64,000 bases of DNA from Bacteroidia bacterium (GTDB lineage: Bacteria; Bacteroidota; Bacteroidia; AKYH767-A; OLB10). The translations under genes were made by a program, and so were the position numbers. Below the pieces are notes generated by a model. It did no database searches. It was not told where the DNA came from and saw only the letters and a program-made list of their open reading frames with translations. The stretch spans positions 1 to 64,000 of the forward strand of contig JAEUTH010000042.1 of assembly GCA_016788165.1 (NCBI GenBank), read 5' to 3'. Shown piece by piece: positions 7,685 through 11,304 of this stretch. The first letter of the stretch is position 1. Every line of letters starts with the position of its first letter.

Positions 7685-7737
7685 GCTACACGCTACACGC
7701 TACACGCTACACGCTACACGCTACACGCTACACGCTA
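7685..7737. repeat. Tandem heptanucleotide repeat (GCTACAC)n
   Basis: Seven perfect head-to-tail copies of GCTACAC (7685-7733) are followed by a broken eighth copy (GCTAAGC). The array lies 114 bases before the ATG of the secreted protein at 7851 and about 200 bases before the cytochrome start. A 7-bp unit is prone to slipped-strand change in copy number, and being intergenic it would change spacing rather than reading frame. Confidence 0.95.
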
Positions 7738-7850: not shown

Positions 7851-9344
7851 ATGAAAAAAATAATTTTATCCTTAATAGCCTTTATCTATATGTTTGCTTT
7901 AAACAGCAAAGCCCAGTTTGCCCCTGCTACCATTGTTGCCAACAATGCACAGCCTTCTTATGGACCATTTATACTTACCAATTGCGATATGCTAACAGGC
8001 TTAAACACTTTAAGTAACACACGTATTTCTGTTATAGTGATGACTGATGGGGTAGCTGGTACATTATTTAGTGAAGCTGTTAATGCAACAACCGGTAATC
8101 TACTTGGCACAAATATTATCAATCTTGCTGATACCGATGCAACATTTGCCGATGTATGTTTGGTTGCCCGTGCTAACAGTGTGTATGCCTTAGTACTTTA
8201 TAAAAAAGCCAGTAACGGACATACCGTTTTACAAACTTTTTTGTGGCATGCGCCTACATATTCATTTACAGATGTACAAACACAAACACTTGATACCGAC
8301 CCTATGGATGAAATGGGGCATATTGATAGCGACACAAACGATTATTGGGTGGCTACCTGGAGTACCGTTGGCACCCAAACCATTAAAACGTGTGTAGGCC
8401 GCACCAATAGCACCGGGCCGTTCATTGTAAATAATTGTAGTAATGTAGAATTAGATTATCCAAATAATATAGGCGCAATTGGTGATTTACGCAACCCTGA
8501 TGTAGCCATTTATAGCAACTCAAACGTTACACCATCGGTTACCACAATTTATTATACTTATACTGCTGCTGGCGACAGAAAAGTAGTGGTACAGGATTAT
8601 AAAATTGTGGGTAATATTAATAATAGTTTTACTGCAATTTGCGATGGCAATAATGGCAGTTTGCCAGCAGCCAATGTGGATGTAATTGATGAGCTTACTG
8701 CCCCACCTCCTCCATTAAACAATGGCTTTGCAGGGGTACGTATTGCCTGCCACCGCGAAGATAACGATGTCAACATATTGCAAGAAGGCTTTATTATAGT
8801 ATATCAACGAATTGGTATTGTTGCCGTTAGCCCAACCCTGCAACAAACGCATGAAGTTTTAGGTCGTGCTTTTTTTTGCTCTTCAAATTCAGCTTGCAAA
8901 TACTTTCCTCCATTAAATAATCCTGCTAATAATTATTGCAACGGAAGTTTACAATTCCAAGGCGTTAACCCAACGCAAACCTTACCAGACATTAACAGTG
9001 TGATGGAGGAAAACAAACTACCACAAATTACTTTAGACCGATTTACCGGTACATTCGACTCAAACCCCAATGCCGATGGCAATACAGCCATATTAACCTG
9101 GAATTACTATGATGGAACCACTTATAAACACAGGCCCGTTATGCTCTATATCAATATCCAAACAGGTTTACCACAGGTGACGCCTAATTTTACGCCTACA
9201 TCTCAGGCTAATTTGTACTTGTTTAATAATGTTTCTACAACTAACGATAATCAAATTGCCGTATCGGTATGTTCCGAAACGGGTAATACCCGTCATATTT
9301 TATATGCCTGGGTGGATGATGCCAATAATATTGTAAAATATTAA
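7851..9344 (+). CDS. Secreted protein, cut before its T9SS domain
   Basis: A 497-aa protein with a clear signal peptide (MKKIILSLIAFIYMFALNSKAQ). The body is beta-rich, with no domain that I can name. It has segments such as WHAPTYSFTDVQTQTLDTDP, DSDTNDYWVATWSTVGTQT and DNQIAVSVCSETGNTRHILY that recall a propeller of sequence-diverse blades. It ends at an in-frame TAA (9342-9344) after NNIVKY. The same frame then continues without another stop through 9635 and encodes a T9SS-like C-terminal domain. So this is either a gene broken by one nonsense change, a base-calling error, or a case of stop read-through. If read through, the product would be 594 aa. The gene at 9637 follows one base after the continued frame. 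Confidence 0.75.
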   Translation: MKKIILSLIAFIYMFALNSKAQFAPATIVANNAQPSYGPFILTNCDMLTGLNTLSNTRISVIVMTDGVAGTLFSEAVNATTGNLLGTNIINLADTDATFADVCLVARANSVYALVLYKKASNGHTVLQTFLWHAPTYSFTDVQTQTLDTDPMDEMGHIDSDTNDYWVATWSTVGTQTIKTCVGRTNSTGPFIVNNCSNVELDYPNNIGAIGDLRNPDVAIYSNSNVTPSVTTIYYTYTAAGDRKVVVQDYKIVGNINNSFTAICDGNNGSLPAANVDVIDELTAPPPPLNNGFAGVRIACHREDNDVNILQEGFIIVYQRIGIVAVSPTLQQTHEVLGRAFFCSSNSACKYFPPLNNPANNYCNGSLQFQGVNPTQTLPDINSVMEENKLPQITLDRFTGTFDSNPNADGNTAILTWNYYDGTTYKHRPVMLYINIQTGLPQVTPNFTPTSQANLYLFNNVSTTNDNQIAVSVCSETGNTRHILYAWVDDANNIVKY

Positions 9345-9635
9345 CACGTAAATACCGGTTTTATTATGCGTAATGGTACACCTGCACAGGTAGTAACACA
9401 AGCACTGTTTTATGAAGACTTATTACACACAGGATTGCAATTACCCAATGAAGATAATATGCACTTAACATTAATGCATTACAACGGCCAGCAATTATTA
9501 AACGTAAAAGGTAACAGCGATAAGTTAAATCAAATTTTACTAAGCCAGTATGATAAAGCAGCACCGGGTTTATTAATTTTAACGCTAAACACAGCAAAAC
9601 AAACATTTATTTTCAAACTACTTAAAACCCAATAA
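9345..9635 (+). pseudogene. Detached T9SS sorting domain of the preceding gene
   Basis: This stretch is in the same frame as the gene at 7851, directly after its TAA. An ATG at 9366 would allow an 89-aa product, but that product would have no signal peptide. The sequence has T9SS type A features: MHLTLMHYNGQQLLNVKG (the 'vxIyDxxGkxv' strand) followed by KAAPGLLILTLNTAK and the final FKLLKTQ ('GlYilri...fkvvK'). The usual YPNP motif is replaced by LFYEDLLHTGL. A sorting domain without an export signal should be useless on its own, so I read it as the severed 3' end of the upstream gene. It ends one base before the ATG of the next gene. Confidence 0.7.
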
Positions 9636-9636
9636 A

Positions 9637-11304
9637 ATGAAACAATTAATAATATTAATGCTGTGCCTGCCTTTTGCATTAAGCGGCCAGGGCATTATTA
9701 CCGATTGGCAAAGAAGTGTTGGGGGTTATGCTAATGAATCACCTGGTATTTGGGGTAGCCATTTTATTTGTCATGGTCCTGATAAATCATGGATATTAGG
9801 TGTATGTAGCAGCAGTGGTGTGGGTGGCGATAAAAGCCAGCCACCTTGTAATGACCAAGGTAATGCCAACGACTTTTGGCAAATAAAATTCGACTCCACA
9901 GGCCAAAAAGTATGGGATTATAAATATGGTAGCTTAGATTTTGATGAGGGCAATTGCATTATAGCAACCAACGATGGCGGTTATTTATTAGCCGGGCGCT
10001 CCTTTGGTGAAGATTGCGATAAAACACAAAGTGCTTATGGCATGGATTATTGGATGGTGAAAACCGATAGCATGGGTTTGTTTCAATGGAATAAACGTTT
10101 TGGTGGCCAGGGGGGGGATGCCGGTTTTGGGGTTTTACAAAGTGCCGATGGCGGCTTTTACTTTTGGGGTTTATCGCAAAGCGGCATTGGCCAGCAAGTA
10201 ACCGATACCAATCATGGTGGTTTTTACGAAGCCTGGTTGGTACGTACCGATGTTAATGGCAATAAATTATGGGATGTAATGCTGGGCAGTATGTTTGAAG
10301 ATGTTTTAAATGGTGCCGTTACCTTGGCCGATAACAGTATTATATTGGTAGGTAGTACCAATGCCGATGGGCCAGATGGTACGGTAAGCCAACCCAATAA
10401 AGGGCCAACATTTACTGAAGACGTATGGATAGTAAAAGTAAATGCTATGGGCCAGATTTTATGGGACAGACGATATGGTGGCATGGGAAACGATGGTGCT
10501 AATGACATTTGTTTGGCGCCCGATAGCGGTTTTTACGTGGTTGGTACTGTTCATAGAGACAGTAAACTACCAGATGTTGCTGATACTACAGATAAGGGAC
10601 TAAATGCGGTTTGGTTACTGAAATTAAATAGCTTGGGTGATAAAGAATGGGATAAAAAATATGGAGGCGACAGCCTAAGTGGAGCGTTGGAAGTATTATA
10701 TTCGGTTACAACTAATACACTGGTAATTTGTGCAATAAGTATGTCGTCTGACACTTTAGATAAAACAGAACCTCATTACGGACATTACGATTTTTGGATT
10801 GTATGTACCGATACTATGGGCAATAAATTATTGGATAAAACCTATGGTGGTTACAGTCAGTTTGTTGATGAGTACAACCCTTCCTTATTAGATATGGGTA
10901 ACCACCATTACATTGTTGCAGGTGCATCGGCTACACCCATAAGCGGCAATAAAACCGTTGCCATACACGATAGTGTGGGCAATGCCACGTCCAATTACCC
11001 CGATATTTGGGTTATTGGTTTTCATTATGATAGTACGGCCACAGCCATGCAGCAGCAGCAACTTATGCCCTTGCAATTGTACCCCAACCCTGCATTGGCT
11101 TATTTGCAAATAGGTTTGCCTTTTGATATCAGCAAAGCTACCTTACTTATTACCGATATGCTGGGCCGCACGGTATGGCAACAATACCTGCCACAAGCTT
11201 ATGATGTAATTACAGTACCTACTGCTACACTTATGCCGGGTATGTATCACCTCAGCTTAACTACGGCAACACATCACACCATAAAAAAGTTTGTAAAGCA
11301 GTAA
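9637..11304 (+). CDS. Secreted repeat protein with T9SS type A domain
   Basis: A 555-aa protein starting with a signal peptide (MKQLIILMLCLPFALSGQG). About seven repeats follow, each with 'W-(K/R)-(Y/F)GG---D-(A/G)--I---DGG(Y/F)-L-G-S' and a 'DYWM/VVKTDSMG' strand, the same style as the partial gene at base 1. The C-terminus is a T9SS type A domain: LQLYPNPALAYLQI, LLITDMLGRTVWQQYL, LMPGMYHLSLTTATH and a final KKFVKQ. It lies one base after the continued frame of the preceding gene and shares its direction, so the two are probably one transcript that ends at the strong hairpin at 11331-11373. The protein is presumably surface-exposed; its binding partner is unknown. Confidence 0.88.
   Translation: MKQLIILMLCLPFALSGQGIITDWQRSVGGYANESPGIWGSHFICHGPDKSWILGVCSSSGVGGDKSQPPCNDQGNANDFWQIKFDSTGQKVWDYKYGSLDFDEGNCIIATNDGGYLLAGRSFGEDCDKTQSAYGMDYWMVKTDSMGLFQWNKRFGGQGGDAGFGVLQSADGGFYFWGLSQSGIGQQVTDTNHGGFYEAWLVRTDVNGNKLWDVMLGSMFEDVLNGAVTLADNSIILVGSTNADGPDGTVSQPNKGPTFTEDVWIVKVNAMGQILWDRRYGGMGNDGANDICLAPDSGFYVVGTVHRDSKLPDVADTTDKGLNAVWLLKLNSLGDKEWDKKYGGDSLSGALEVLYSVTTNTLVICAISMSSDTLDKTEPHYGHYDFWIVCTDTMGNKLLDKTYGGYSQFVDEYNPSLLDMGNHHYIVAGASATPISGNKTVAIHDSVGNATSNYPDIWVIGFHYDSTATAMQQQQLMPLQLYPNPALAYLQIGLPFDISKATLLITDMLGRTVWQQYLPQAYDVITVPTATLMPGMYHLSLTTATHHTIKKFVKQ

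What the first reader, a model, noticed from the sequence alone, without database searches (positions are those of the whole stretch)
9339..9635. Single in-frame TAA severs a T9SS sorting domain from its secreted protein
The frame of the signal-peptide protein (7851-9344) continues past one TAA with no shift for 97 codons and encodes a T9SS-like C-terminal domain that ends one base before the next gene. The detached part has no export signal. Either a recent nonsense mutation disables surface display, or the stop is read through, which would make a secreted/anchored switch, or it is a base error.
Basis: partly seen in the sequence, partly recalled or inferred. Interest (0 to 1): 0.6.

Follow-up and report, generated by a model that had tools for sequence, protein, structure and literature searches.

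The report
Stop-truncated T9SS cargo gene, decaying copy
One stop codon cuts the export tag, and the end of the main fold, off a secreted propeller protein; all 22 relatives compared at this site lack the stop and a second copy of the locus in the same genome has lost almost the whole gene, so this looks like ordinary gene decay, not a read-through switch.

Summary
The frame of 7851-9344 continues past TAA 9342-9344 for 96 codons to TAA 9633-9635. The tail has the codon usage of real genes and weakly matches the T9SS type A sorting domain (TIGR04183, 20.0 bits, cut-off 23). The gene belongs to a sparsely distributed family of secreted beta-propeller proteins with a C-terminal T9SS tail. In 22 relatives (14 genomes, one a paralogue in this genome) the frame runs unbroken from propeller into tail; 16 have lysine where the window has TAA. 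The predicted structure puts the stop inside the last propeller strand, not in the linker, so the short product loses the end of its fold as well as its tag. No ochre-suppressor tRNA, no folded RNA after the stop, no relative with a stop here; TAA is the main stop codon. Elsewhere in the genome (C7:204-290) a second copy of the locus keeps the upstream region and the first and last codons of this gene, with nearly all between deleted, in front of a second copy of the next gene. Best reading: a nonsense mutation in a dispensable cargo gene. A consensus base error is the main rival; programmed read-through is unlikely. Ordinary.

The parts
7685..7737 (+). 7.6 perfect copies of GCTACAC, upstream of the gene
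   Evidence: one other array of three or more copies in the genome, C17:64728-64755
7851..9344 (+). Truncated ORF: N-terminal signal-like segment (MKKIILSLIAFIYMFALNSKAQ) and beta-propeller body, ending at the in-frame TAA
   Evidence: family and fold:
9330..9353 (+). Last predicted strand of the propeller (residues 494-501), which holds the stop site (residue 498)
   Evidence: matches to solved propellers run to model residues 500-516
9342..9344 (+). In-frame TAA; Lys in 16 of 22 relatives, a sense codon in all 22
9345..9635 (+). Detached 96-codon continuation with its own stop: end of the propeller, linker and T9SS tail
9420..9632 (+). T9SS type A-like C-terminal domain (approx. residues 524-594)
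   Evidence: TIGR04183 positions 14-71; mostly strands, pLDDT about 70-80
9637..11304 (+). Next gene: SBBP-like repeat protein with its own T9SS tail; relatives of it follow the family's genes at many loci

Best explanation
The gene at 7851-9635 was one continuous gene for an exported beta-propeller protein with a C-terminal T9SS sorting domain. A single-base nonsense change turned a codon in the last propeller strand into TAA. The cell now most likely makes a 497-residue product that enters the periplasm through its signal peptide, lacks the end of its fold and its sorting domain, and so is not sent through the T9SS and is probably degraded. The tail is left untranslated and still looks intact, which points to a fairly recent event. 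Shown here: the continuous frame in relatives, the place of the stop in the predicted fold, the coding quality of the tail, and a second copy of the locus in this genome from which nearly all of the same gene is missing. Inferred: that the stop is real and not a base error, that the product is unstable, and that the gene is dispensable.
For: All 22 relatives that could be compared at this column, one of them a paralogue in this genome, read through it in one frame into a C-terminal tail; 16 have Lys there and 2 Arg. The stop is inside the last propeller strand (propeller matches to solved structures, Z up to 28.2, rmsd 3.1 over 338 residues, model 28-505). The tail has normal codon usage and no further damage. 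Relatives of the same taxonomic family also lack the YPNP motif (G006, G008, G009, G015, paralogue C23), so its absence is not a sign of decay. The C7 copy keeps the upstream region (93% identical over 147 bases), the first codons and the last codons (MKKIIQQRMQSFKENGQKTQVYKLIKTQ*) directly before a second copy of the next gene. Another relative, in G022, is also broken, by a stop and a deletion. Other cargo-type genes in this genome are broken in the same way: TAG at C31:165010-165012 in a large repeat protein, TAA at C19:9160 and C2:6702 inside T9SS tails, so nonsense breaks in secreted genes are not exceptional here.
Against: One assembled consensus only; a base error would look the same. 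No close relative is held (one genome in the genus), so neither dN/dS nor the age of the event can be had. The tail is somewhat more diverged than the body (tail/body identity ratio 0.65, within the 0.58-1.01 range of the relatives), which would also allow an older event.
Confidence: 0.68

Rival explanations
1. The TAA is a wrong base in the consensus of an assembled genome, or one strain's allele chosen by the assembler; the gene is intact in the organism.
For: The genome is a 46-contig assembly; a single substitution is enough; the rest of the gene is clean and all 22 relatives compared are open here.
Against: In 464 kb only one other clear within-gene stop was seen among 24 candidates, so the consensus is not riddled with errors; the same gene is nearly deleted at the C7 copy, which suggests that this genome can do without it.
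Confidence: 0.24
2. The TAA is read through at some rate, so that a short periplasmic form and a full-length exported form are both made (a switch).
For: The tail is open and coding-like; the base after the stop is C and not the strongly terminating U (PMC5289835).
Against: No stop at this site in 22 relatives; stop inside a strand; no tRNA with a UUA anticodon among the 33 tRNA genes found; no RNA structure after the stop (z +1.2 and +1.4) and no Rfam match; TAA ends 25 of 38 long ORFs; UAA has the least read-through of the three stops in bacteria (PMC5289835).
Confidence: 0.04
3. The truncated protein is a working periplasmic protein that has given up secretion.
For: The body keeps 36 of 53 positions conserved in seven relatives.
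Against: The stop cuts the last propeller strand; none of the 22 relatives lacks the tail.
Confidence: 0.04

Closest known systems
T9SS type A cargo proteins (TIGR04183 / PF18962 sorting domain)
   Same: N-terminal signal-like segment, exported domain, C-terminal sorting domain at the very end of the frame; at least 150 such tails score above cut-off in this genome.
   Different: The sorting domain is cut off by an in-frame stop; its match is under the curated cut-off and it lacks the YPNP start, as do same-family relatives.
Ordinary bacterial nonsense pseudogenes
   Same: One premature stop in an otherwise intact frame; relatives intact; a second copy of the gene in the genome decayed further.
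   Different: Nothing found that sets it apart.
Programmed stop-codon read-through (selenocysteine UGA, pyrrolysine UAG, phage coat extension proteins)
   Same: An in-frame stop followed by a coding continuation.
   Different: UAA, no decoding tRNA found, no stimulating structure found, stop not conserved.

Membership tests
T9SS type A cargo (before the stop arose) | Sorting domain of TIGR04183/PF18962 at the C-terminus | tested here: inconclusive
   Tail alone E 5e-4, 20.0 bits, cut-off 23; no Pfam match; 14 of 22 members of the aligned set match TIGR04183 and 13 match PF18962; the set's profile matches T9SS tail chains 8glk_D and 8glj_D
T9SS type A cargo (before the stop arose) | N-terminal Sec signal peptide | not tested
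   MKKIILSLIAFIYMFALNSKAQ looks like one and is modelled as a helix; no signal-peptide program was run
T9SS type A cargo (as it stands) | Sorting domain in the same polypeptide as the exported domain | tested here: not met
   In-frame TAA 9342-9344
Nonsense pseudogene | Relatives carry a sense codon and a continuous frame at the stop | tested here: met
   22 of 22 compared at this column
Nonsense pseudogene | Stop present in the organism and not a consensus error | not testable with these tools
   No reads are held
Programmed read-through | Stop conserved at the site in relatives | tested here: not met
   0 of 22
Programmed read-through | tRNA able to decode UAA (UUA anticodon) | tested here: not met
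   33 tRNA genes found, none with this anticodon; a missed tRNA is not excluded
Programmed read-through | Stimulating RNA structure after the stop | tested here: not met
   z +1.2 and +1.4 against shuffles; no Rfam family
Programmed read-through | Full-length product made | not testable with these tools
   Needs protein data

The most novel reading that the evidence does not exclude
A UAA stop inside the last propeller strand is read through at a low, regulated rate to make a small share of exported protein.
Probability: 0.03. Interest if true: 0.6.

Novelty: new member of a known kind. Interest (0 to 1): 0.14.

Why it matters
Mostly as a caution: a gene caller would report a secreted protein of 497 residues with no T9SS signal and would miss the tail. 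It also shows a paired surface-protein locus from which the first gene is being lost in two ways in one genome while the second gene is kept. If read-through were real it would be a new way to set how much cargo is exported, but nothing found here supports it.

Tried and rejected
Single-sequence searches with the body found only a few weak relatives and none by pattern scan; the family came from profile searches. A first structure from three sequences was poor (pLDDT 37.8) and was not used; 22 sequences gave 70.7. The idea that the missing YPNP motif shows decay of the tail (4 of 13 conserved tail positions kept, against 36 of 53 in the body, Fisher p 0.025) was dropped when same-family relatives proved to lack the motif too. 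A general use of in-frame stops before T9SS tails was considered, because two other T9SS genes have a TAA inside the tail (C19:9160, C2:6702), the second in a frame that is also broken further upstream; too few, and unlike each other, to be more than decay. A comparison of such stops in six related genomes listed only the best-scoring tails and could not give rates. Viral contigs held no relative.

Full report
Observation. The window has an ORF from ATG 7851 to TAA 9342-9344, and the same frame goes on for 96 sense codons to TAA 9633-9635, one base before the ATG of the next gene at 9637. The continuation is coding: its codon score in frame (0.40) is at the 69th percentile of real coding pieces of that length from the window, and none of the off-frame pieces reaches it. 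It resembles the T9SS type A sorting domain (TIGR04183, E 5e-4, 20.0 bits against a cut-off of 23).

What the gene is. Single-sequence searches found almost nothing, but profiles built with two distant relatives reached a family spread over the order. I compared 22 relatives from 14 genomes at the stop column, including a paralogue in this genome (C23:68328-69914). All read through the column in one frame and end in a C-terminal tail of 83-111 residues, against 96 in the window. The residue at the column is Lys in 16, Arg in 2, and D, F, L and W once each. Some relatives, mainly from the window's own taxonomic family, lack the YPNP start of the sorting domain, as the window does, so this is a trait of the clade and not damage. 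A further relative in G022 is itself broken, by a stop and a deletion. At about a dozen of these loci the gene is followed, on the same strand, by a relative of the window's next gene, so the two form a recurrent pair.

Fold. AlphaFold2 on the read-through protein with 21 relatives gave pLDDT 70.7, pTM 0.72: a beta-propeller followed by a mostly stranded tail. Solved propellers match model residues 28 to about 505 (best Z 28.2, rmsd 3.1 over 338 residues); a shared propeller fold says nothing on function. Residue 498, the stop site, lies inside the last propeller strand (494-501). The stop therefore does not part two domains at a linker; it removes the end of the propeller as well as the tag. 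For a T9SS cargo the tail is needed for secretion: loss of two residues from the end of RgpB keeps it in the periplasm (PMC11285876).

Read-through. Nothing found supports it. None of the 22 relatives has a stop here. All 33 tRNA genes found carry ordinary anticodons, none for UAA. RNA after the stop folds no better than shuffled sequence and matches no Rfam family. TAA ends 25 of 38 long ORFs in the window, so it is not reassigned, and UAA is the stop with the least read-through in bacteria (PMC5289835). The base after the stop is C and not the strongest-terminating U, which at most leaves a little room for it.

A second, more decayed copy. The start of contig C7, read on the minus strand, carries the same upstream region (93% identical over 147 bases, including two copies of the heptamer), the first codons of this gene, then its last codons, giving a 28-residue frame MKKIIQQRMQSFKENGQKTQVYKLIKTQ* at C7:204-290, followed two bases later by the start of a second copy of the next gene. 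The end of contig C3 carries the 3' end of a copy of the next gene at 93.8% DNA identity; that C7 and C3 hold the two ends of one copy is an inference. So in this genome the first gene of the pair is nearly gone at one place and carries a stop at the other, while the second gene is kept. This favours real decay over a base error, but does not prove it.

How common such breaks are here. A filter for two coding-like pieces in one frame separated by one stop, over 464 kb of this genome, gave 24 candidates including the window's. On reading them, nearly all are neighbouring genes (for example RimO/BshC and FtsA/FtsZ) or low-complexity frames on the wrong strand; one other looks like a real within-gene stop, TAG at C31:165010-165012 in a large repeat protein of secreted type, and C31:214261-214263 is unclear. 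This reading was by eye. Outside that sample, two T9SS genes have a TAA inside the tail itself (C19:9160, C2:6702). Broken cargo genes are thus present at a low rate, as expected for dispensable surface proteins.

Verdict. A nonsense mutation in a dispensable T9SS cargo gene is the best reading (0.68), with a consensus base error as the main rival (0.24). Read-through is unlikely (0.03-0.04). The finding is correct as seen and ordinary in meaning.

Noticed in passing
7685-7737: 7.6 perfect copies of the heptamer GCTACAC, 114 bases upstream of ATG 7851; one other array of three or more copies in the genome (C17:64728-64755), and two copies at the C7 paralogous locus. Could slip and vary expression; not tested.
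   Followed up: partly
L068:204-290 (G000:C7, minus strand): A 28-codon frame made of the first and last codons of a paralogue of this gene, in front of a second copy of the next gene: looks like an in-frame internal deletion, perhaps kept as a leader.
   Followed up: partly
G000:C31:165010-165012 (minus strand): In-frame TAG between a 517-codon and a 2247-codon frame of a large repeat protein; the downstream part has no signal peptide in view. Probably a second severed secreted gene.
   Followed up: no
L044 (G000:C19:9160) and L045 (G000:C2:6702): Two other T9SS cargo genes in this genome have a single in-frame TAA inside the sorting domain.
   Followed up: partly
L155 (G022:C2:379-1398): A relative of the gene in another genome is broken by an in-frame stop and a deletion of part of the propeller.
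   Followed up: partly
9637-11304: The next gene, an SBBP-like repeat protein with a T9SS tail, recurs next to this family; a second copy lies at the ends of contigs C7 and C3.
   Followed up: partly
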